Part shown: positions 39,629-53,108 of the stretch, piece by piece
How the letters are laid out: every line of letters starts with the position of its first letter
Position numbering within the stretch: the first letter of the stretch is position 1
Assembly: GCF_013409505.1 (NCBI RefSeq)
Contig: NZ_JACCBN010000001.1
Location: 2,232,001 to 2,296,000, forward strand
Length of the DNA stretch: 64,000 bases
Source: Actinomycetospora corticicola
Lineage (GTDB): Bacteria > Actinomycetota > Actinomycetes > Mycobacteriales > Pseudonocardiaceae
Reading direction: 5' to 3'
Position numbers and translations under genes: made by a program
Notes under the pieces: generated by a model
The model's input: the letters and a program-made list of their open reading frames with translations, nothing else
Told to the model about the DNA's origin: nothing
Databases searched by the model: none

Positions 39629-39763
39629 CGCACGACCGAATTCGGGGCCGATCGGATCCCCGACCTTCGACCCGTTGCTTTCCGCCGTGACTCCGATCAC
39701 GATCGACCGCGATCACATCGTGGCCTGGACATCGTGGCGATCATCTCGGCGGGGAGCACCGGT

Positions 39764-40870
39764 ATGGAATCGATCTTGTTGTTCGTGATCGGCATCGCGG
39801 TGCTGGTGTTCAGTGCGGAGAAGTTGATCGGCTATCTCGTCGGGGTGGCGAGTCGCTGGACGATCTCGCTGTTCCTCATCGCCGTGATCTTCACGGGGAT
39901 CGAATTCGACGACCTCGCGTTCGGGATCGTGCTGAACCTGGAGGATCTGAGCAACGTCGCCCTCGGCACGGTGATCGGGACGACGGTGGCGATGACGGGC
40001 GTCGTGCTCGCGATCTCCGCCATCGTCGCCCCGTGCGAGGTCGAGGTCCCGCGCAGTTACCTCGCGCTGTTCGTGCTCGCACCGGTCGTCATGCTCGCGT
40101 TCGCCCTCACCGGCTTCTTCACGGTGACGTCGGGGATCGTGCTGCTGGCGGCGTTCGTGGCGTTCGTCGGCTTCGTCGCCTGGCGGGAGTACGCCGCGCG
40201 CAAACCGGTGTTCCGCAACGCCGAGGTCTACGAGCAGCTCGAGAAGGTCGGCGCCGGCGTGGGCGGGAGCGGTGGCGCGGTCGCTCTCGGCGACCGGGAC
40301 GACACCCCGCCCCCGTCGGGCAGCGGCTCCGCGGGCCACGGCTTCACGCTCCCGCCCGACCTCCGGGTCGACCAGGGCTTCCTCAAGGCGCGGGCGCACT
40401 CCCCCGGGGTCGGCCTCGGGCTCGCCGTGCTCGCGCTCGTGGGCCTCGTCATCGGGGCCGTCGCCGCGGGCCAGGCCACGGAGGGGGTCATCGAGACCCT
40501 CGGGATCGAGGGCACCGTCTTCGGTGTCACCATCGCGACGCTGGCCCTCTCGCTCGAGGACATCTTCCTCACCGCCGAGCCGCAGCGCCGGGGCGCCCCG
40601 GAGATCGCGGTCGCCAACGTCATCGGCAGCGTCGTGTTCTCCGTGACCGGCAAGCTCGGCGTCATCCTGCTCACGGGCGGCGCGATCGCGGTCGACGAGG
40701 ACGTGGTGGCCTGGCACCTGCCGGTCCTCATCGTCATGACGGCGATCGCGGCGGGCTTCCTCGCCACCGGGCGGCTGCGCCGCTGGCACGGCGTGGTGCT
40801 GCTCGCCCTGTACGTCGCCTACTTCGTGGTGAGCCTCGTGGCCTTCGGCGGCGTGCCGATGGACGACTAG
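39764..40870 (+). CDS. CaCA-type cation exchanger
   Basis: 368 residues from ATG 39764 after GGGGAGCACC. About 10 transmembrane helices in two similar halves. Alpha-repeat-like motifs are TGIEFDDLAFGIVLN in the first half and ATLALSLEDIFLTAEPQRRG in the second, followed by NVIGSVVFSVTGKLG. The acidic residues in these repeats are what bind Ca2+ or Na+ in the Pfam Na_Ca_ex family. A central loop (about 150-210) is Gly/Asp/Pro-rich and probably cytoplasmic. Likely Ca2+/H+ or Na+/Ca2+ antiport. Confidence 0.8.
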   Translation: MESILLFVIGIAVLVFSAEKLIGYLVGVASRWTISLFLIAVIFTGIEFDDLAFGIVLNLEDLSNVALGTVIGTTVAMTGVVLAISAIVAPCEVEVPRSYLALFVLAPVVMLAFALTGFFTVTSGIVLLAAFVAFVGFVAWREYAARKPVFRNAEVYEQLEKVGAGVGGSGGAVALGDRDDTPPPSGSGSAGHGFTLPPDLRVDQGFLKARAHSPGVGLGLAVLALVGLVIGAVAAGQATEGVIETLGIEGTVFGVTIATLALSLEDIFLTAEPQRRGAPEIAVANVIGSVVFSVTGKLGVILLTGGAIAVDEDVVAWHLPVLIVMTAIAAGFLATGRLRRWHGVVLLALYVAYFVVSLVAFGGVPMDD

Positions 40871-42369: not shown

Positions 42370-43052
42370 GCCGGGTACGCCGCGTCGATCGCGTCCATCA
42401 TCGACCAGAGCACGTCGTTCTTGAACGCGAGCGCGTCGTACGCCGCCTGCTCGAGCTCCGGGGTGCGGCAGTGCTCGAGCACCACCTCCAGGGCGTGCTC
42501 GGAGTCGCGCGGGGCCTGGTGCAGCCGGTTGCGGAAGTACTGCAGGCCCGCCGGGTCGATCCACGTGTAGTACTTCTCGAACGCGGCGAGGCGGGTCGCC
42601 ATGAGGTCGGGGGCGAACAGCTCGGTCAACGAGGACGCCACCGCGACCGGCCACGGCTTCGTCCGCGCGAAGGTGATGTACGCGTCCACCGCGAACCGCA
42701 CCCCGGGCCGCAGGTGCACGTGCGAGGTCATCTCCTCGCGCGGCACCCCGCACGCCTCCCCCAGCCGGAGCCAGGCCTCGATCCCGCCCGGGTCGTCGCC
42801 GACGCCGTCGTGGTCGGTGATCCGCCGGATCCAGCGCCGCCGCACCGTCACGTCCGGGCAGTTCGACAGGATCGCCGCGTCCTTGATCGGGATGGCCTCC
42901 TGGTAGGCGAAGCGGTTCGCCACCCACCCGCGGATCTGCGCCGGGGAGAGCTCGCCGTCGTTCATGCGCACGTGGAACGGGTGCGCCGCGTGGTACCGGG
43001 AGGCCTGCGAGCGCAGGCGCTCGGTCAACGTCGTCTCCACCACTGCGGTCAT
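42366..43052 (-). CDS. pqqC: Pyrroloquinoline-quinone synthase PqqC
   Basis: 228 residues from ATG 43052, which overlaps the pqqB stop by 4 bases. Key segments: HPFHVRMNDGELSPAQIRGWV, NRFAYQEAIPIKDAAILSN, DHDGVGDDPGGIEAWL, RFAVDAYITFAR and SSLTELFAPDLMATR. PqqC performs the last step, ring closure and eight-electron oxidation of AHQQ to PQQ, using O2 without a metal. Length is as expected for a stand-alone PqqC. Confidence 0.96.
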   Translation of the reverse strand: MTAVVETTLTERLRSQASRYHAAHPFHVRMNDGELSPAQIRGWVANRFAYQEAIPIKDAAILSNCPDVTVRRRWIRRITDHDGVGDDPGGIEAWLRLGEACGVPREEMTSHVHLRPGVRFAVDAYITFARTKPWPVAVASSLTELFAPDLMATRLAAFEKYYTWIDPAGLQYFRNRLHQAPRDSEHALEVVLEHCRTPELEQAAYDALAFKNDVLWSMMDAIDAAYPA

Positions 43053-43936
43053 GCCGAGATCTCCGTCCCGTCGGTCCCGATCTCCACCCCGGCCTTCCCG
43101 ACGACGGGGCGCTCGGCCGCGTCGGGCAGGAGGATCGGGTTCGAGTTGTTGACGTGCACCAGCACCACGCGCGGCACGCCGAGGTCGGCGAACGCGTCGA
43201 GCGACCACTCCAGCGCGACGTGCCCCATGTCCGCCGCGGTCTTGCGGCCGAGCCCGAGCCGGACGAGCTCGTCGTCGTGGAAGCAGGTCCCGTCCACGAG
43301 CAGTACGTCGGCGCCCGCGCAGGCCGCCCGCAGCGGCGCCAGGTCGGCCACGCCGGGGGCGTACACGACGACGCCGCCCGTGCGCCGGTCGTGGAACCGG
43401 TAGCCGACGACGCGACCCTCCTCGGGACCCGACGTCGGGAAGCGGGGCGTCTTGCCCGTGGGCAGGTCGAACGCGGTGTAGCTGAGGTCGTCGGTGAGCG
43501 CGTGCTCGACCCCGATCCCCACCTCCACCACCGTGACCGGGCAATAGGCCTCCAGCGTCGTCAGGAAGCCCGTGCCCTCCCGCAGGACCGCCTCGGAGGC
43601 GGCCGTCGCGTGCACCGTCACCCCGGCACCCTCGCGCAGGATGAGCAGGCCGAGCGTGTGGTCGATCTCCGCGTCGGTCAGCAGGATCGCCTCGACCGGG
43701 TTGCGCCGGGTCGCCCCCGGGTGCAGGTCGGGGGCCGCGGTGAGCTGCTGGCGGACGTCGGGCGAGGCGTTGACGAGAAAGGCACGAGCACCGGCGGGTC
43801 CGTCGTCGACGACGGCGATCGAGGACTGGGTGCGCGGCTCGACGGTGCCCGTGCGGGCGGCCGTGCAGCCGGCGCAGGAGCAGTTCCACTGCGGGAGCCC
43901 GCCGCCGGCGGACGACCCGAGGACGCGGACCTTCAC
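43049..43936 (-). CDS. pqqB: PQQ biosynthesis protein PqqB
   Basis: 295 residues from GTG 43936, overlapping the stop of the di-iron gene. Metallo-beta-lactamase-type fold with the family N-terminus [21 protein letters not shown], then LTDAEIDHTLGLLILREG (family version of the HxHxDH region, D-x-x-I-D-H), VDGTCFHDDEL, ADMGHVALEWS and VHVNNSNPIL. PqqB is an iron-dependent hydroxylase acting on the crosslinked Glu-Tyr product. N-terminal CxxC (NCSCAGC) is a zinc site in PqqB. Confidence 0.95.
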   Translation of the reverse strand: MKVRVLGSSAGGGLPQWNCSCAGCTAARTGTVEPRTQSSIAVVDDGPAGARAFLVNASPDVRQQLTAAPDLHPGATRRNPVEAILLTDAEIDHTLGLLILREGAGVTVHATAASEAVLREGTGFLTTLEAYCPVTVVEVGIGVEHALTDDLSYTAFDLPTGKTPRFPTSGPEEGRVVGYRFHDRRTGGVVVYAPGVADLAPLRAACAGADVLLVDGTCFHDDELVRLGLGRKTAADMGHVALEWSLDAFADLGVPRVVLVHVNNSNPILLPDAAERPVVGKAGVEIGTDGTEISA

Positions 43937-44697
43937 CAGAACTTGATCCCGACGGACTTGAGGCGGCGCTTGTGCAGCTGCTCCACCTTCTCGATGTCCT
44001 GACGGTCGATGAGCTCGCCCCAGGCGTTCGCGGCCTTCATGCCCTGCTGGAGCAGCTCCTCCATCTCGTCGGAGACGACGTCGGCGCTCTGGATGACGCG
44101 CGAGCCGAAGCCGATGTGCCAGCGCTCGTCGCGCAGCACCAGCTCCATGCCCTTGTGTACCCCGGGCATGCCCACCGAGCAGCGGTCGAGGGCGGCCAGC
44201 AGCGCGTGCTGCCCGGCCGTGAGGACCACACCCTCGAGGATCATGTGGTAGAGGCTGACCGCCGCGGTCAGGTCCTTCTCGCCGGCCGCGAGGTCCTCGG
44301 CGAGGGTGGGCAGCCGCTCCTCGAACAGTTCGAGCAGCTCCGGGCTCACCCGCTCGCGCAGGACGTCGAGCCGCTCGGCGAGGTTCTCCCCGGGGATGCC
44401 GACGACCTCGCCGGCGACGCGGTCGAAGAAGCGGGCGTGCCGGGCCTCGTCGCGTGCCTGGGCGCGGAAGCAGCCGGCCATGGAGTCGTCGGTGGTGGCC
44501 CGGTCCTCGAAGGAGCCGAGGTGCGTGGCGACCGCCATCTCGCCGACGCAGAACCCGGCGATCAGGCCGAGCACACGGTCGCGCTCCTCGCTCTCGAGCT
44601 TCGACCACGCCTCGACGTCGCCGGTCAGGTCGATGGCCTGCTCGTCCCACTGCAGCGACTCGGCGAGTTGGACGAAGTGTCCGTACCCGGTGATCAT
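43933..44697 (-). CDS. R2-like di-iron oxidase/ferritin-like protein in pqq operon
   Basis: 254 residues from ATG 44697. Four-helix di-iron carboxylate site is complete: Glu53 (VGEMAVATH), Glu84-x2-His87 (DEARHARFF), Glu155 (ILEGVV) and Glu191-x2-His194 (DERWHIGFG). The N-terminus [18 protein letters not shown] recalls ribonucleotide reductase R2/R2-like proteins. It is much shorter than R2 and no nrdE-type gene is near. Start overlaps the rubredoxin stop by 4 bases, and its stop overlaps the pqqB start by 4 bases. Likely an O2- or peroxide-using redox enzyme served by the rubredoxin and needed for PQQ formation or repair; this role is inference. Confidence 0.88.
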
Positions 44698-44894
44698 AGA
44701 TCGAGATCCTCTCCCGGTTGCACCTCGCGGAAATCCGCCTTCTCGGCGCCGCAGATCGGGCACATCCAGTCGTCGGGAATGTCCTCGAAGGGCGTCCCGG
44801 GCGGGATGCCGCTGTCGGGGTCACCCTCCTCCGGATCATAGATGAGTCCGCACATCTCGCAGATCCACTTGCTGGCCACGGGCGGCGCACTCAT
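44694..44894 (-). CDS. Rubredoxin
   Basis: 66 residues. The two Cys pairs that bind one iron are [15 protein letters not shown] and [13 protein letters not shown], and [12 protein letters not shown] between them is typical of rubredoxins. A short N-terminal extension (SAPPVASK) precedes the domain. Mobile one-electron carrier, expected to feed the di-iron protein whose start overlaps its stop. Separated from pqqA upstream by a 14-bp hairpin. Confidence 0.95.
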
Positions 44895-44971: not shown

Positions 44972-45052
44972 TCAGTCGTCCATCTGGGCGACGTACATCG
45001 TCACCTCAGGGGCGACACCGATTTCGGTGAACTCCGGGGTCTCCCACGTCAT
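44972..45052 (-). CDS. pqqA: PQQ precursor peptide PqqA
   Basis: 26 residues starting MTWETPEFTEIGVAPEVTMY and ending VAQMDD. The EVTMY motif holds the Glu and Tyr that become PQQ (Glu-x3-Tyr spacing conserved). Strong ribosome site AAGGGAGGTCTGAC before the ATG. Too short for ordinary gene finding. Compared with the classical peptide, which ends soon after Tyr with basic residues, the tail here is acidic (MDD). Confidence 0.96.
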   Translation of the reverse strand: MTWETPEFTEIGVAPEVTMYVAQMDD

Positions 45053-45099: not shown

Positions 45100-46788
45100 T
45101 CAGTCCTCGGGCAGTGCGAAACAGAACAGCGCGTCACCCGCGGAGGCGCCGAGCAGGCCGGGCAGGAAGCCCTCGACCCAGCCGCCCCAGCCGGTCGGCA
45201 CGGCCACGTACTGCCGCCCGTCGACCTCGAAGGTGATCGGGCTCGAGTGGTGTCCGCTACCGCACTGGAACTGCCACAGCTTCTCGCCGGTGGACGCGTC
45301 GAGGGCGACGAACTCGCCGCTCGGCGTGCCCTGGAAGACGAGCCCGCCCGCGGTCGTCACGTTCGACGCGCACATCGGGTACTCGTGGTTCCAGCGCCAC
45401 TTCTCCTCGCCGGTCAGCGGGTCGACCGCGCTGACGAAGCCGTAGTGGTCGTCGAGGTCGACGGCCACGCCGGCCCCCCAGTAGGGGATCGACTCCTTGA
45501 ACTCGCGGCGACGGCGGGTCGCCGTCGCCCCGACCTCCTGGACCGGGATGTAGATCAACCCGGTCTCCGGGTTGTACGACATGTGGGTCCACTCCTTGCC
45601 GCCGGCCGGGCCGGGCCAGAAGTGGACGGGGACGCCCTCCTCGTCGGGGTAGATCTTCGGCGTCACCTTGCCGTCGGCGCTGATCTCGCCCCAGGTGATG
45701 CGGTCGACGAACGGGAAGACCCGCACGAGCTCGCCGTTGCTGCGGTCGAGGACGAAGAAGTAGCCGTTCTTGTCCGCGTGGGCGAGCAGCTTGCGCCCGT
45801 CCGGAGCGTCGAAGAGGACGTTCTCCATCGTCGAGTCGTAGTCCCACAGGTCGTGGGGCGTGAACTGGTAGTGCCAGCGGATCTCGCCGGTGTTCACGTC
45901 GATCGCGACGGTCGAATCGGTGTAGAGGTTGTCGCCCGGGCGCACCCCGCCGTCGAAGTCCGGCGCCGGGTTGCCCGTCCCCTGGTACAGGAGCTCGAGG
46001 TCCGGGTCGTAGGTCGGGGTGATCCAGCAGTTCGCGCCACCGCGCTGCCAGGCCTCGCCGTCGTCCGGCCAGGTCTCCGAGCCGGGCTCGCCGGGCTTCG
46101 GCACCGTGTAGCAGCGCCAGCGGCGCTCGCCGGTCTGGGCGTCGAAGGCGTCGAGGTGCCCGCGGACACCGAACTCGCCGCCGGCGCTGCCCACGACGAC
46201 CATGTCCTTGACGATCAGCGGGGCGGCCGAGCCGCTCTCGCCGGCCCGGACGTCACCGTTGGTGGTGTCCCAGACCTTCTCGCCGGTGGTCGCGTCGAGC
46301 GCGATGAGGTGGGCGTTGAGGGTGTACATGTACACCTTGCCGTGGCCCACGGCGACGCCGCGGTTGACGTTGCCGCAGCACAGCGAGGTGTCGAACGGCG
46401 AGGCGTGCTTGTACCGCCAGAGCTCGTCGCCGGTCTTCGGGTCGATGGCCCAGACCTTGCCGTCGGGGCCGGAGACGTACATGACCCCGTCGACCACGAG
46501 CGGGGTGGCCTCGAACGAGTAGGTCGAGGCACCGGAGTGCATGCCGGTCGAGCCCGCCTGGAAGACCCAGGCCGGGGTGAGTCGGCGGACGTTGTCCTTG
46601 GTGATCTGGTTCAGCGTCGAGTAGCGCTGTCCGTCGTAGGTGCCGTAGTAGGTGAGCCAGTTCTCCGGCTCCGACCGGGCACCCTGGATGCGCTCGTAGT
46701 CGACGTTGCGTGTCGCGGGCGCCTCGCCCTTGACGTTGGACAGTGTGCGGTGGGCGACGGCCTCGCCGGCGTCGACGTAGTCGGTCAT
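45100..46788 (-). CDS. PQQ-dependent alcohol dehydrogenase (methanol/ethanol family), lanthanide-type
   Basis: 562 residues from ATG 46788 with a GAGGAGCACACC ribosome site. Eight-bladed propeller enzyme. Visible: vicinal Cys137-Cys138 (SLCCGN) that form the unusual disulphide over PQQ, Glu205 (GGEFG), Asn273 (GTGNPAPDF), Asp316 catalytic in LWDYDST, and Asp318, two residues further. This Asp-Tyr-Asp pattern is the hallmark of lanthanide-dependent enzymes (XoxF, PedH); calcium enzymes have Ala or Ser there. No signal peptide: the N-terminus MTDYVDAGEAVAHRTL is hydrophilic. Oxidises a primary alcohol, and the electron acceptor is unknown. Confidence 0.93.
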   Translation of the reverse strand: MTDYVDAGEAVAHRTLSNVKGEAPATRNVDYERIQGARSEPENWLTYYGTYDGQRYSTLNQITKDNVRRLTPAWVFQAGSTGMHSGASTYSFEATPLVVDGVMYVSGPDGKVWAIDPKTGDELWRYKHASPFDTSLCCGNVNRGVAVGHGKVYMYTLNAHLIALDATTGEKVWDTTNGDVRAGESGSAAPLIVKDMVVVGSAGGEFGVRGHLDAFDAQTGERRWRCYTVPKPGEPGSETWPDDGEAWQRGGANCWITPTYDPDLELLYQGTGNPAPDFDGGVRPGDNLYTDSTVAIDVNTGEIRWHYQFTPHDLWDYDSTMENVLFDAPDGRKLLAHADKNGYFFVLDRSNGELVRVFPFVDRITWGEISADGKVTPKIYPDEEGVPVHFWPGPAGGKEWTHMSYNPETGLIYIPVQEVGATATRRRREFKESIPYWGAGVAVDLDDHYGFVSAVDPLTGEEKWRWNHEYPMCASNVTTAGGLVFQGTPSGEFVALDASTGEKLWQFQCGSGHHSSPITFEVDGRQYVAVPTGWGGWVEGFLPGLLGASAGDALFCFALPED

Positions 46789-46807: not shown

Positions 46808-47272
46808 TCAGGGACGGGGCTGGGCCGGGCGGTCGAGCTTGGCCGAGTCCGGCACCTCGCCACCCATGACCAGGGCGGCGGTCAGGCCGCGGCCCTCGTC
46901 GTTGCCGGTGGTGGAGCCGTACCAGTAGGCCCCGGGACCGTCGAGGTTCAGCCGCGCCGTCCCCTTCGAGTGGTTGACGAGCCAGATGATCTTCGGGTCA
47001 CCGTTGTGCGGCAGGAGCGCGCAGTGGGTGTTCTTGTCGTCGTTGATCAGCGTCAGCTCGATGTCCCCGCCGTGCGGGAACACGATGATGCTGGGGTCGA
47101 AGATCAGCTGGTCCTCGGGGATGCGGACGGTGGCGCGCATGACGCCGTCCTCGCCCTCCTCGGCGTAGCCGACGTTGCCGGTACCGAGCATGCGCCCCAG
47201 CGTCGTGCGGTTCTGTCCGTCCAGTCCCGCTGCATGGAGCTCCTGGGCCCGATCGTCTGCCGTGGCCGTCAT
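46808..47272 (-). CDS. PQQ-associated cupredoxin-like protein (MSMEG_3727 type)
   Basis: 154 residues from ATG 47272 with GAGGAGGGGACGGCCG before it. Beta-sandwich protein with VRIPEDQLIFDPSIIVFPHGGDIELTLINDD and the metal-ligand-like segment NTHCALLPHNGD (Cys and His), ending LDGPGAYWYGSTTGNDEG. Resembles the small PQQ-associated protein found with PQQ dehydrogenases in mycobacteria. Could be the electron acceptor of the dehydrogenase that follows it by 19 bases. No signal peptide visible. Copper binding is inferred, not shown. Confidence 0.85.
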   Translation of the reverse strand: MTATADDRAQELHAAGLDGQNRTTLGRMLGTGNVGYAEEGEDGVMRATVRIPEDQLIFDPSIIVFPHGGDIELTLINDDKNTHCALLPHNGDPKIIWLVNHSKGTARLNLDGPGAYWYGSTTGNDEGRGLTAALVMGGEVPDSAKLDRPAQPRP

Positions 47273-48462: not shown

Positions 48463-51400
48463 TCACGACGACGGGTCGGGACCGTCCTCGACGGCCGTCA
48501 CCGTGCCGAGCAGCGCCTCGCACGCGGCGGCCAGCACGGTGGCGGCGTCCCGGACGTCCCGCGCGGTGCCCGGGTGGCCGGCCAGCCGGGCCCAGGCGGT
48601 GCGCTGCTTGCGGGCGAGCCGGGCGAGCTCGAACCGGTCGGCCGCGCGGTCGACGCCGAGCCGGGTCGCGGGGTCGCCGCCGCGCAGCAGCCGGGCCGCG
48701 GCGTCCCGGCGGCCGGGTGGGAGGGCGACCCGACCGGCGTCGAGGTCGTCGGCGAGCGCCTGCTCCGCGAGCTCGCGGGCGCCCGCCGCCCGGACCCGTT
48801 CGAGCTCCACGGCGAGCCGGCGCGTCCAGGGCCGCCCGGGCGCCGCCGCCACGAGGCCGTCCGCCGCGTCCAGCGCCGCGAGGGCCCGACGACGGGCCGC
48901 CACGGGACGGCAGCGGGCCACCAGCACCGTCGCCAGCCGGCCGAGGTTCGTCCCGCCGAGGGCACCGGGACCGGGCAGCGCGACCCGGACGACGCCGGTG
49001 AGCGGGTCCTCCGCCGACACCGAGACCGCGGGCACCACCCGGGCCCCGACGGTGGGCACGGCGGCGAGCCAGTCCGGGACGCGGGTCCCGGTGTCGTCCT
49101 CGGCCAGCAGCACCAGCGCGTCGACGACCTCGTCGGGGGCGAGCGGGCCGAGCGCGGCGCGGCCCGCCAGGTCGACGACGGCGGCGGGCCGCTCGACCAC
49201 CCCGGCGAGCGCGGCCGCGACGGCGGCGCCGTCCCGGGGCGTCGGGCCGGCGACCCCGTACCGCCAGGGGTCGCCGAGCGCGACGGCCAGGGCGGCGACC
49301 CGCTCCGCCGCGGGATCGCCGACCGGGACCTCCTCCAGGGTCCGGCGCAGCACGGACTGGGTCTGCGCGAACAACGGCGACCCGGGGTCGGGCAGGGGCG
49401 GGCCCACCGGGCCGACCGGGCGGCGTGGTCCGGTCCCGAGCGTCGGGACGACGGCAGGCAGGCGCGGGTCGGGGGCCTGCGGGACCTGCGGGGCCGCCGG
49501 GGTCCGGACCGGACCCACCTGCCGGGTGGCCTCCTCGACGAGGGCCCGCGCGCGGACCGCGATCCGCTCGCGGGTGGCGTCCGACCCGCCGTCGGGACCG
49601 GGACCGGCGACGAGGGCGGGGACGAGCCCGGTCGCGGCGTCGGTCGACGGGGGCCCGGGCTCCGACGGGGTGGTCCCGACCGGGATCTCGGCCCGGACGA
49701 CGGTCCCCTCGCCCGGCGCGGAGGTGAGCGTGACGCGTCCCCCGACCCGGGCGAGGCGGGCGTCGAGGTTGCGCAGGCCGCGGCCCGGGCCGTCGCGCTC
49801 GACGGTGAAGCCGGGTCCGTCGTCGGCGACCCGCAGGACCAGGACGCCGCCCCGCTCCTCCAGCCGCACCCGGACCGCGGCGCCCCCGGCGTGCTTGCGG
49901 GCGTTGTTCACCGCCTCGAGGCACACGAAGTAGGCGGCGGCCTCCACCGCCTCGTCGTGCCGGTGGACGCCGACGGCGTGGAGCGTGACGGACGGGTCGC
50001 CGGCGAGGTCGGCCTCGAGGGCGCCGACGAGGCCGAGCCGGGCCAGGGTGGCCGCGGACATCCCGGCGGCGGCCCCGGCCAGCACCGTGCCCGCGGTGTC
50101 GAGCTGCTCGCGCAGGACATCCAGGCGCTCGCGGGCGTCCGCGAGGCGACCGGCGCCCACCAGGTGCTCGACCAGGCCGAGGGTGAGCCGGAGCGAGACG
50201 AGGTGGTGCTGGGCGCCGTCGTGCAGGTCCCGCTCGAGGCCGCGCCGCTCGGCGTCGGTCTCGGCGACCAGGCGCCGCCGGGCGGCCGCGATCTGCTCGG
50301 CCTGGGCGACCCCGGCCCGCAGCTGGCGTTCGAGCTCGACCTCGGTCCGGTGCGCGACGAGGGCCCCCTCCAGGCCGGCCGCCACCTCGGCGACCAGCCG
50401 GGTCCGGTCCCCGGCGCCGGCGAGGGCCTCGGCGTCCACGGCGAGCGACCCGATCTCCCGGTCCGCGTGGTGGATCGCGAACGCGACCTCCTCCTCCCCC
50501 GCGCCCGGGTCGCGCCAGGCGACGACGCGGTCCCGCAGGCCGTCCCGGTGCACGGTGAGGCGGACGGCGCGGGCACCGAGGGCCCGTCCGACGGCCTCCG
50601 GCACGTCGTCGAGACCACCGTCGTCCCGCGCGGCGGACGCGACCCGGGCGAGGACGTCGGCGGGGGTGGCGCGGTTGCCGTGGAGCAGGCGTTCGGCGAG
50701 GCGGTCGGCCGCCGCGGAGACCGGGAGCCAGAGCACGGCGACGGCGAGGGTCGCGACGACCCAGCCGGTCACCGATCCGCCGGTGGCCCGGCCGGACAGG
50801 GCGGACACGAGGGTGGCGAGCAGGACCGCGAGCCCGCCGAGCCCGACCACGGCGAGCAGCGCGGCGAGGCCGCGGTGCAGGAGACGCTCGGCCGAGCGGG
50901 CGCGCCGGGCGGCGAGCACGGCCAGGGCGAGCACCGCGGCGGTGAGCCGGGAGAACCAGAACAGCAGCGCCAGCGGGAGGCCGACGCCGGGGCCGCCGTG
51001 CCGGGCGGTCGGGTCGTCGAGGGTGAGACCGGGGCGGCCGAGCAGCGCGAGGACCAGGGTCAGCAGCCCGAGCACCAGCGCCGCGCCGAGGGCGGCCACG
51101 AGCACGCTCGTCAGCAGCCGCGCCCGGGCGCGGGCCTCCCGGTCGGGCCCGCGGCGCACGGCCGGTCCGACCGCGGCGAGGCCCAGCAGCGGCACCCCGA
51201 ACCCGAAGAACACCACGCAGCTCACGGTGTGCGGCAGCAGCGCGGTGCCGAGGCCCGCGAGGAACAGGACCGCGGCGACCACCGGCACCAGCGCCCGCGA
51301 GCGGCGCCCGCCGGGCGGGTCGACGACGGTGAGCAGGGCCCCGGCGTAGGCCGCGCCCGCGATGCCGTGCAGCAGGATCTGGTGCAGCTCGCCGATCTCG

Positions 51401-51771
51401 AGGCCCGTCGCGGCCCGGACGGCGGCGGTGGCCGCGTGGGCCTGCAGGTTGAACGCTCCCGCCGACCCGACCATGGCCAGCGCGAGCAGCCGCGTCGGCC
51501 ACGCGTCGCCCCCGGAGCGCAGCAGGACCACGGCGACGAGGAGCGAGACCCCGCTCGCGAGGTAGTCGACGACGGCCTGCCCGGAGGGCTCGTCGAGCGC
51601 GGCGGGCCCGGCCGGTCCCACCACCGCGACGACGGCGCCCACCGCCAGCCACACCAGCGTCATCGCGGTGACGACGCCGAGCACGACCCGGTACCCGACC
51701 CGTGTCGCGGTCCGGCGCGTCACCCCGGAACCGGGCGCGACGGCGGGCGGCAGCGCCACGCCGCCGGTCAC
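48463..51771 (-). CDS. Sensor histidine kinase with long C-terminal extension
   Basis: 1102 residues, starting GTG 51771. About 10 transmembrane helices fill residues 20-380. The catalytic part is HisKA_3 type: ERRGLERDLHDGAQHHLVSL, with the phospho-acceptor His517, then CLEAVNNARKHAGG (N-box) and VLRVADDGPGF, GRGLRNLDARLARVGG (G-boxes). From about 700 to 1102 follows a Pro-rich linker and a helical domain with GVAGPTPRDGAA and VVDALVLLAEDDTG, of no clear family; a degenerate dynamin-like GTPase is one weak possibility. Start overlaps the stop of the next kinase-like gene by 4 bases. Confidence 0.85.
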   Translation of the reverse strand: MTGGVALPPAVAPGSGVTRRTATRVGYRVVLGVVTAMTLVWLAVGAVVAVVGPAGPAALDEPSGQAVVDYLASGVSLLVAVVLLRSGGDAWPTRLLALAMVGSAGAFNLQAHAATAAVRAATGLEIGELHQILLHGIAGAAYAGALLTVVDPPGGRRSRALVPVVAAVLFLAGLGTALLPHTVSCVVFFGFGVPLLGLAAVGPAVRRGPDREARARARLLTSVLVAALGAALVLGLLTLVLALLGRPGLTLDDPTARHGGPGVGLPLALLFWFSRLTAAVLALAVLAARRARSAERLLHRGLAALLAVVGLGGLAVLLATLVSALSGRATGGSVTGWVVATLAVAVLWLPVSAAADRLAERLLHGNRATPADVLARVASAARDDGGLDDVPEAVGRALGARAVRLTVHRDGLRDRVVAWRDPGAGEEEVAFAIHHADREIGSLAVDAEALAGAGDRTRLVAEVAAGLEGALVAHRTEVELERQLRAGVAQAEQIAAARRRLVAETDAERRGLERDLHDGAQHHLVSLRLTLGLVEHLVGAGRLADARERLDVLREQLDTAGTVLAGAAAGMSAATLARLGLVGALEADLAGDPSVTLHAVGVHRHDEAVEAAAYFVCLEAVNNARKHAGGAAVRVRLEERGGVLVLRVADDGPGFTVERDGPGRGLRNLDARLARVGGRVTLTSAPGEGTVVRAEIPVGTTPSEPGPPSTDAATGLVPALVAGPGPDGGSDATRERIAVRARALVEEATRQVGPVRTPAAPQVPQAPDPRLPAVVPTLGTGPRRPVGPVGPPLPDPGSPLFAQTQSVLRRTLEEVPVGDPAAERVAALAVALGDPWRYGVAGPTPRDGAAVAAALAGVVERPAAVVDLAGRAALGPLAPDEVVDALVLLAEDDTGTRVPDWLAAVPTVGARVVPAVSVSAEDPLTGVVRVALPGPGALGGTNLGRLATVLVARCRPVAARRRALAALDAADGLVAAAPGRPWTRRLAVELERVRAAGARELAEQALADDLDAGRVALPPGRRDAAARLLRGGDPATRLGVDRAADRFELARLARKQRTAWARLAGHPGTARDVRDAATVLAAACEALLGTVTAVEDGPDPSS

Positions 51772-53051
51772 CGGGCGTCCGGGAAGAGCTCGACCGGGAG
51801 CCGGATCCGCAGGCCCGAGGCGTCGACGTCGAGGGCCCCGCCGAGCGCGGCGAGCCGGTCGGCCTCGTCCGCCAGGGCGCCCGGGTCCACGGTGCCCTCG
51901 GCCCCGTCGGCCACGTCGGCCCCGTCGGCACCTTCCGCACCGGATGCCCGGGTGACCTCCACCGTGGCGCGGTCGCCGGCGCGGCCGAGGGTCACCTCGA
52001 GCGGGTCGTCCCCCGGGACGGCCGAGAGCACCGCCAGTGCGGCGTAGTAGAGCCCCGACTCCACCTCCCAGGGCAGCCGGTCGGGCAGGCGCCCGGCGAG
52101 GTGCACCGGGCGGGGCAGGTCGGCGACGACCTCCTCCAGTGCGGCTCGCAGCCCCTGGTCGCGCAGCACGGCGGGGTGCACGCCGCGGGCGATGACGCGG
52201 AAGCGGTCCAGGAGGTCCTCGAGCCGCTCGCGGGCGACGTCGAGATGGTGGCGGGCCAGCTCCGCGGCCTCGGTGCGGTCGTCGTCGGCGGCGTCCGGGG
52301 CGAGCCCGTCGTCGAGGACCTCGCCGGCGTCGTCGACGGCCCGACGCAGGGCGACGAGCCGGTCGCCGGTCGCGTCCGCGAGCTCGCCGGCGAGGCGACG
52401 GCGCTCGGCCTCCCGCGCCCGTCCGAGCCGGCGTCGGGACTCCCCGGTCTGGCGGGCCAGCTCGGCGACCCGCTCCACGCGGTCGCGTAGTTCCGCCCCG
52501 CGTGCGAGGCCGCGCACGAGCAGCCCGGTGGCGTCGGCGACGTCCGCGACCAGGGCGCGGTCGGCCGCGGTGACCGGACGTCCGGGCTTGCCGACGGTGA
52601 GCACGGCCCGCAGCCCGGCACCGGACGAGCCGGGAGGTCGGTCGAGGACCGGGTGCGCGTGGTCGACGTCGGGGCGGGCGAGCAGCTGCGCGAGGTCGGC
52701 CACCCGCTCCCCCGTGCGGCCGACCAGTCCGTCGCCGCCCGCGAGCCAGACGTCGGCGGACGCGGCCCGGGTGCCCTCGCGCAGCACCGTCGCGAGGGCG
52801 GGCAGGGAGGCCGCGTCGCCGGTCGCGGCGGCCAGCACCGCCGACCGTCCGACACCGGACGACCGGCCGCCGTCACCCGGGGCGGCGAGGCCGGTCACCG
52901 CGAGCACGGCGGCCGCGAGGCCGACCCCGGCGAACGGGGCGAGGACCGGACCGGCGGCGCCGAGGGCGAGCTCGCCGGCGACGACGGCGAGGAGCAGGCA
53001 GATGGCGACGACACCGGCGACGGACAGCGCCCGCAGTCCACCCGTCGTCAT
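51768..53051 (-). CDS. Degenerate histidine-kinase-like protein
   Basis: 427 residues from ATG 53051 with GGGGACC upstream. Two membrane helices at the N-terminus, a GAF-like or helical middle (residues 60-180), then a DHp-like helix with RRLAGELADATGDRLV. Compared with the HisKA_3 pattern R-R-L-A-x-x-L-H-D-G, the His is replaced by Ala (near residue 224). The ATPase part YYAALAVLSAVPGDDP lacks the N-box Asn and the DxGxG motifs. So it cannot phosphorylate by the usual route. Stop overlaps the start of the complete kinase. Confidence 0.8.
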   Translation of the reverse strand: MTTGGLRALSVAGVVAICLLLAVVAGELALGAAGPVLAPFAGVGLAAAVLAVTGLAAPGDGGRSSGVGRSAVLAAATGDAASLPALATVLREGTRAASADVWLAGGDGLVGRTGERVADLAQLLARPDVDHAHPVLDRPPGSSGAGLRAVLTVGKPGRPVTAADRALVADVADATGLLVRGLARGAELRDRVERVAELARQTGESRRRLGRAREAERRRLAGELADATGDRLVALRRAVDDAGEVLDDGLAPDAADDDRTEAAELARHHLDVARERLEDLLDRFRVIARGVHPAVLRDQGLRAALEEVVADLPRPVHLAGRLPDRLPWEVESGLYYAALAVLSAVPGDDPLEVTLGRAGDRATVEVTRASGAEGADGADVADGAEGTVDPGALADEADRLAALGGALDVDASGLRIRLPVELFPDAR

Positions 53052-53108
53052 GAGGTCCCCGTCCGCCACGCGTGGGCACGGAGCGTAGGCACCGCGCCGG
53101 GGGGTCGT

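What the first reader, a model, noticed from the sequence alone, without database searches (positions are those of the whole stretch)
45100..46788. Alcohol dehydrogenase with lanthanide-type Asp-Tyr-Asp
Catalytic Asp316 is followed by Tyr317 and Asp318. In PQQ alcohol dehydrogenases an Asp two residues after the catalytic Asp is the accepted marker of lanthanide (La-Nd) use, as in XoxF and PedH; calcium enzymes have a small residue there. If correct, this actinobacterium uses rare-earth metals. No lanthanide-binding or uptake protein is seen nearby.
Basis: partly seen in the sequence, partly recalled or inferred. Interest (0 to 1): 0.7.

Follow-up and report, generated by a model that had tools for sequence, protein, structure and literature searches.

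The report
Actinobacterial PQQ enzyme with lanthanide-type site
A soil actinobacterium carries a single PQQ-dependent alcohol dehydrogenase whose metal site has every residue shared by the known rare-earth-metal enzymes, yet it belongs to a separate, untested family that has no export signal, so if it really uses rare earths it would probably do so inside the cell, where no such enzyme is known.

Summary
The gene at 45100-46788 (minus strand, 562 aa) encodes a TIGR03075 PQQ alcohol dehydrogenase with Trp315-Asp316-Tyr317-Asp318. All four residues that bind the metal in lanthanide enzymes are present (Glu205, Asn273, Asp316, Asp318), together with Gly204, a second lanthanide-associated residue. 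D316/D318, E205 and G204 are invariant in 92 distinct homologues.

Asp-x-Asp alone is not a proof: E. coli glucose dehydrogenase (Gcd), generally regarded as a Ca/Mg enzyme, has it too, although Gcd lacks the other ligands. The protein is neither XoxF nor PedH. It forms its own clade (support 100/100; nesting beside PedH rejected, p = 0.0003), the uncharacterised MSMEG_3726 family.

The gene sits in a complete pqqA-B-C-D-E operon and is the genome's only PQQ propeller dehydrogenase. No family member has a signal peptide, so the enzyme is probably cytoplasmic. A CaCA-type cation antiporter with an unusually acidic transport motif adjoins the operon and recurs beside it in 26 of 44 testable relatives.

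Best reading: a lanthanide-capable, probably cytoplasmic PQQ alcohol dehydrogenase. Ca or Mg use remains possible. No metal has been measured.

The parts
45100..46788 (-). [quoted passage not shown] metal ligands Glu205, Asn273, Asp316, Asp318; Gly204; vicinal Cys137-Cys138; no signal peptide
45835..45843 (-). codons of Asp316-Tyr317-Asp318 (the motif of the finding)
   Evidence: position computed from the ATG at 46788
46808..47272 (-). MSMEG_3727-family PQQ-associated protein (TIGR04339/PF23509), predicted cupredoxin fold without conserved copper ligands, no signal peptide; next to the ADH in all fetched family loci
44972..45052 (-). pqqA, PQQ precursor peptide (PEVTMYV core)
   Evidence: TIGR02107, 32.2 bits over cut-off 20
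44694..44894 (-). rubredoxin
   Evidence: PF00301, NF045768
43933..44697 (-). R2-like diiron protein (ribonucleotide-reductase small-chain/R2lox superfamily)
   Evidence: PF00268; weak hits to R2lox structures
43049..43936 (-). pqqB
   Evidence: TIGR02108 325.8 bits
42366..43052 (-). pqqC
   Evidence: TIGR02111 304 bits
42052..42369 (-). pqqD
   Evidence: TIGR03859 78.7 bits
40935..42059 (-). pqqE
   Evidence: TIGR02109 518.7 bits
39734..40870 (+). CaCA-family (Na/Ca exchanger) cation antiporter, convergent with pqqE; GIEFDD in place of the GTSLPE motif of NCX_Mj
   Evidence: PF01699 94.4 bits; conserved neighbour; motif

Best explanation
This is the genome's only propeller-type PQQ alcohol dehydrogenase, made in one operon with the PQQ biosynthesis genes. 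It belongs to a distinct, mostly actinobacterial clade (MSMEG_3726-like) that keeps the full four-ligand metal site of lanthanide-dependent PQQ dehydrogenases. SHOWN: the ligand set, its invariance, the separate clade, the operon, the absence of a signal peptide, the constant small cupredoxin-fold neighbour, and the recurrent cation antiporter. INFERRED: a light lanthanide (La-Nd) is bound by Glu205, Asn273, Asp316 and Asp318 and polarises the PQQ C5 carbonyl; Asp316 takes the proton from the alcohol; the alcohol is oxidised to an aldehyde; and PQQH2 passes electrons to an unknown acceptor. Because neither the enzyme nor its partner carries an export signal, both probably work in the cytoplasm, with the metal supplied or controlled by the neighbouring CaCA-type antiporter.
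For: Glu/Asn/Asp/Asp in 91 of 92 homologues and Gly before Glu205 in 92 of 92. Among the PDB sequences aligned here, 4 of 4 lanthanide enzymes have this exact combination, and 6 of 6 calcium enzymes have Ser, Thr or Ala at the extra-Asp position and Ala or Asp at the Gly position. A review lists the same four ligands for the lanthanide structures and names Gly171 as a further lanthanide-associated residue (PMC11845868). Best PDB relatives by sequence and by fold are PedH and XoxF. Complete pqqABCDE and a sole PQQ propeller dehydrogenase. No signal peptide: in 45 of 109 loci an in-frame stop lies within 15 codons upstream of the conserved start, and hydrophobicity of the first 45 residues stays below that of exported relatives. 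CaCA antiporter near pqqE in 26 of 44 testable loci, while PF01699 is found at only two places in the genome.
Against: E. coli Gcd carries Asp-x-Asp without being known as a lanthanide enzyme (PMC11996626). Deep branches of the superfamily also have the Asp, so it may simply be ancestral. No lanthanide-specific protein was found: MoxJ/XoxJ-type TIGR03871 is absent, and lanmodulin was not searched for. CaCA antiporters normally move Ca2+. Inside a cell Mg2+ is far more available than lanthanides. The AlphaFold model is only fair (pLDDT 76), contains no metal, and the block with residues 311-320 has low confidence.
Confidence: 0.52

Rival explanations
1. The Asp-x-Asp site is the ancestral form and here holds Ca2+ or Mg2+ (or is promiscuous), as in E. 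coli Gcd; the enzyme is an ordinary Ca/Mg PQQ dehydrogenase and the neighbouring antiporter handles Ca2+.
For: Gcd has WDMD and is reported to work with several divalent metals (PMC11996626). Deep actinobacterial, Halococcus and Deinococcus relatives also have Asp-x-Asp. The adjacent transporter is from the Ca2+ antiporter family. A cytoplasmic enzyme would meet abundant Mg2+.
Against: Gcd has Asn/Val at the Glu/Asn ligand positions and Asp where lanthanide enzymes have Gly, so its site differs. The full Glu-Asn-Asp-Asp plus Gly set was found only in lanthanide enzymes among those of known metal in this comparison.
Confidence: 0.33
2. The enzyme uses lanthanides but is exported by an unrecognised route and works outside the membrane like XoxF and PedH.
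For: Conserved vicinal Cys137-Cys138 (92/92), which in relatives forms a disulfide typical of exported proteins (from established knowledge); the tested lanthanide PQQ enzymes are periplasmic (PMC11845868).
Against: No Sec or Tat signal in any of 92 homologues, none in the partner protein, and the start site is fixed by nearby stops in many loci.
Confidence: 0.12
3. It is a member of the known lanthanide families XoxF or PedH/ExaF.
For: Best hits are PedH and XoxF.
Against: Separate clade at 100/100; placing it with the PedH subclade is rejected (AU p = 0.00027); sister to PedH+ExaA (p = 0.13) or to Xox+Mxa (p = 0.09) is not rejected but not favoured. No cytochrome c partner gene was seen beside it and TIGR03871 (XoxJ/MoxJ type) is absent.
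Confidence: 0.03

Closest known systems
MSMEG_3726/MSMEG_3727 pair of Mycobacterium smegmatis (TIGR03075 + TIGR04339)
   Same: Same family by annotation: lone PQQ dehydrogenase in the PQQ cassette beside the MSMEG_3727-type protein (Mycolicibacterium locus L106).
   Different: The family is named, but no enzyme activity or metal was found described in the papers read; here rubredoxin and an R2-like protein are added to the operon.
PedH of Pseudomonas putida (6zcv/6zcw), lanthanide ethanol dehydrogenase
   Same: Same fold (TM 0.87), same four ligands and Gly before Glu.
   Different: 43% identity; other clade; PedH is periplasmic and has a Ca-dependent twin, PedE; the query has no export signal and no twin.
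XoxF methanol dehydrogenases (4mae, 6dam, 6oc5)
   Same: Same four ligands and Gly before Glu.
   Different: 36-41% identity; other clade; XoxF has Thr where this family has Pro276; periplasmic, with XoxG/XoxJ partners.
E. coli glucose dehydrogenase Gcd
   Same: Asp-x-Asp motif (WDMD).
   Different: Membrane-anchored; lacks the Glu and Asn ligands and the Gly.

Membership tests
PQQ-dependent alcohol dehydrogenase, methanol/ethanol family (TIGR03075) | Score over curated cut-off (480 bits) | tested here: met
   628.8 bits
PQQ-dependent alcohol dehydrogenase, methanol/ethanol family (TIGR03075) | Glu-Asn-Asp metal site and vicinal cysteines | tested here: met
   E205, N273, D316, C137-C138
PQQ-dependent alcohol dehydrogenase, methanol/ethanol family (TIGR03075) | Signal peptide / extracytoplasmic location (usual, not required by the family model) | tested here: not met
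   No hydrophobic N-terminus in 92 homologues; stops close upstream
Lanthanide-dependent PQQ dehydrogenases | Extra Asp two residues after catalytic Asp | tested here: met
   D318, 92/92
Lanthanide-dependent PQQ dehydrogenases | Gly before the metal-binding Glu | tested here: met
   G204, 92/92; 4/4 lanthanide vs 0/6 calcium PDB enzymes
Lanthanide-dependent PQQ dehydrogenases | Bound lanthanide and lanthanide-dependent activity | not testable with these tools
   Needs protein chemistry
PedH/ExaF clade | Groups with PedH to the exclusion of ExaA | tested here: not met
   AU p = 0.00027
XoxF clade | Groups inside the XoxF/MxaF clade | tested here: not met
   XoxF/MxaF is a 100/100 clade without it; a sister position is not rejected, p = 0.09
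XoxF clade | XoxJ/MoxJ-type partner in genome | tested here: not met
   TIGR03871 absent from the genome
MSMEG_3726-type actinobacterial PQQ ADH | Adjacent MSMEG_3727-family protein and PQQ cassette | tested here: met
   TIGR04339 266.9 bits; pair present in all fetched family loci

The most novel reading that the evidence does not exclude
A phylum-wide actinobacterial clade of PQQ alcohol dehydrogenases uses lanthanides inside the cytoplasm, with the metal handled by a CaCA-type antiporter whose transport motif has been remade with extra acidic residues (GIEFDD / SLED): a first cytoplasmic lanthanide enzyme and a first Gram-positive lanthanide transport candidate.
Probability: 0.22. Interest if true: 0.85.

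Novelty: new variant of a known kind. Interest (0 to 1): 0.5.

Why it matters
The review read here (PMC11845868) describes lanthanide PQQ enzymes as periplasmic and says that the need for lanthanides in the cytoplasm is unknown. A conserved family with a lanthanide-type site and no export signal, spread over Actinomycetota, would make that question directly testable and would widen rare-earth use to common soil actinobacteria. If the enzyme turns out to use Ca or Mg instead, it would show that the widely used Asp-x-Asp criterion over-counts lanthanide enzymes in metagenome surveys, which is also worth knowing.

Tried and rejected
1) Glu184 was first taken as the Glu ligand; the alignment showed the true position is Glu205 in GGEFGVRG. 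2) A missed signal peptide upstream of ATG 46788: rejected, because other loci have in-frame stops a few codons upstream and the readthrough residues are not conserved. 3) The MSMEG_3727-like neighbour as a copper electron carrier: its predicted fold is cupredoxin, but only one His and no Cys or Met of a copper site is conserved, so copper electron transfer is unlikely. 4) Membership of PedH or XoxF: see the tree tests. 5) Lanthanide machinery: TIGR03871 absent; lanmodulin and lanthanophore genes were not searched. 6) Other PQQ users: no second propeller dehydrogenase; two GSDH-family (PF07995) proteins over the cut-off lie elsewhere in the genome and could also use PQQ. 7) Literature: no paper was found in the held library reporting metal or activity for this actinobacterial family; Good et al. 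2020 on the essential Asp is not held, so it is known here only through citing papers.

Full report
WHAT IS THERE. On the minus strand, ATG 46788 to 45100 encodes a 562-residue protein with W315-D316-Y317-D318 at the stated place. It scores 628.8 bits against TIGR03075, far over the cut-off. The window lies in a single-contig 6.17 Mb genome in which this is the only match to PF01011 and to TIGR03075; the membrane-type model TIGR03074 is matched only by this same gene, under its cut-off. The nearest named relatives are Actinomycetospora species (97-98% protein identity).

THE METAL SITE. Ten PDB sequences of known metal were taken from the printed search alignments and aligned with the query, 92 distinct homologues and other relatives. 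The four residues that hold the metal in lanthanide structures (listed in PMC11845868) correspond to Glu205, Asn273, Asp316 and Asp318. Glu-Asn-Asp-Asp is found in PedH and three XoxF structures; the six calcium enzymes have Glu-Asn-Asp followed by Ser, Thr or Ala. A second marker named in that review, Gly in front of the Glu, is also present: Gly204 in 92 of 92 homologues, Gly in 4 of 4 lanthanide enzymes, Ala or Asp in 6 of 6 calcium enzymes. A third XoxF feature, Thr in place of Pro a few residues after the Asn, is absent (Pro276); PedH also has Pro there. The Asp pair, Glu205 and Gly204 are invariant; one homologue of 92 has Asp for Asn273.

THE MARKER IS NOT ABSOLUTE. E. coli Gcd (read from MG1655) has VHHDLWDMD, that is Asp-x-Asp. 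A 2025 ocean survey (PMC11996626) notes this and that Gcd works with several divalent metals. Gcd however has Asn and Val at the Glu and Asn positions and Asp at the Gly position, so the query's site matches the lanthanide pattern better than Gcd does. Asp-x-Asp is also widespread in deep branches (actinobacterial lipoprotein-like relatives, Halococcus, Deinococcus), so it may be the ancestral state, lost in calcium lineages.

FAMILY. A maximum-likelihood tree puts the query in a 100/100 clade with actinobacterial sequences (Pseudonocardiaceae, Mycobacteriaceae, Micrococcaceae, Streptomycetaceae, Kineosporiaceae, Rubrobacteraceae, Solirubrobacteraceae) and one unclassified one (bacterium HR26), apart from the PedH/ExaA, XoxF/MxaF and quinohaemoprotein clades. 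In a smaller set, grouping it with PedH alone is rejected (p = 0.00027); sister to PedH+ExaA (p = 0.13) or XoxF+MxaF (p = 0.09) is not rejected, so its exact place is open. It occurs in 91 of 299 genomes sampled from the same taxonomic family and in about 11 of 397 genomes across the phylum (my count of matches at 65% identity or more, query included). The M. smegmatis member, MSMEG_3726, was noted in 2011 as a lone PQQ dehydrogenase in the PQQ cassette (PMC3023750); a 2019 study found that ethanol growth of M. smegmatis depends on mycofactocin instead (PMC6529628). No activity or metal was found reported.

OPERON. On the same strand follow pqqA (44972-45052), rubredoxin (44694-44894), an R2-like diiron protein (43933-44697), pqqB, pqqC, pqqD and pqqE. 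Upstream is the MSMEG_3727-family protein (46808-47272), present beside the ADH in all loci of the family fetched. It is predicted to be a cupredoxin fold (pLDDT 83, Foldseek E about 1e-5 to auracyanin and CuA domains), but the copper ligands are not conserved; invariant instead are N77-D78-D79-x-N81-x-H83 and G123-N-D-E-G-R-G.

LOCATION. Neither the ADH nor the partner has a signal peptide. The ADH starts close to a conserved Y-[VI]-[DE]-A stretch in nearly all homologues; in 45 of 109 loci with readable upstream sequence an in-frame stop lies within 15 codons upstream of the position of the query's Met1, and what can be read upstream is not conserved. The most hydrophobic 12-residue stretch in the first 45 residues has a median of 0.70 (maximum 1.68) against 1.82-2.56 for exported bacterial relatives and Gcd (a simple hydropathy scan, not a trained predictor). 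The best inference is a cytoplasmic enzyme. The tested lanthanide enzymes act in the periplasm, and the need for lanthanides in the cytoplasm is described as unknown (PMC11845868). The conserved Cys-Cys pair is the one observation that sits less easily with a cytoplasmic place.

TRANSPORTER. Next to pqqE, convergent, is a CaCA-family antiporter (39734-40870; PF01699 94 bits). It lies within 4 kb of pqqE in 26 of 44 relatives where enough sequence is held, in both orientations and across Actinomycetospora, Pseudonocardia, Saccharopolyspora, Arthrobacter, Kineosporia and Allosalinactinospora; one of the 26 (L059) is only a distant match (27% identity). The genome has PF01699 at two places only. 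Compared with NCX_Mj, the transport motif GTSLPE (G49-E54) reads GIEFDD, and in the second repeat TSLPE reads LSLED. GIEFDD is found in nearly all relatives that cover it, two having GVEVDD or GIEVDD. The cargo is unknown.

STRUCTURE. AlphaFold2 on 32 family sequences gave pLDDT 76, pTM 0.85. Foldseek ranks PedH first (TM 0.87, E 1.9e-51), then XoxF. The model is weak around residues 311-320 and has no metal, so it supports the fold, not the metal.

VERDICT. The more interesting point is the combination of a lanthanide-type site with no export signal. Mechanism beyond the site (metal identity, substrate, electron acceptor, location) is inference.

Noticed in passing
window 39734-40870 (+); homologues in L034, L053, L091 and others: CaCA-family antiporter linked to the PQQ/ADH operon across genera, with GIEFDD and SLED replacing the canonical GTSLPE/TSLPE ion-binding motifs. 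Cargo unknown; candidate Ca or lanthanide handling protein.
   Followed up: partly
window 43933-44894 (-); also L037, L053, L058, L060, L070: A rubredoxin plus R2-like diiron protein pair recurs near this ADH (R2-like hit in 26 of the 80 loci, rubredoxin in 22; my counts). Its role, for example an oxygenase making the alcohol or an electron outlet, is unknown.
   Followed up: partly
window 46808-47272 (-): MSMEG_3727-family protein: cupredoxin fold without copper ligands but with invariant acidic/Asn clusters (NDDxNxH, GNDEGRG); constant neighbour of the ADH, function unknown.
   Followed up: partly
window 48463-53069 (-): Two adjacent histidine-kinase-like genes upstream of the cluster (the larger matches HisKA_3 and HATPase_c; the smaller has no Pfam hit), also seen in Actinomycetospora locus L034; possibly regulators.
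   Followed up: no
G000:C1:5501134-5502141: The genome also encodes the mycofactocin radical SAM maturase (TIGR03962, 654 bits), so it has two peptide-derived redox cofactor systems associated with alcohol oxidation.
   Followed up: no
L142 (Halococcus dombrowskii plasmid): A haloarchaeal PQQ-propeller protein with Asp-x-Asp (WDYDSPCP) also shows no hydrophobic N-terminal stretch.
   Followed up: no
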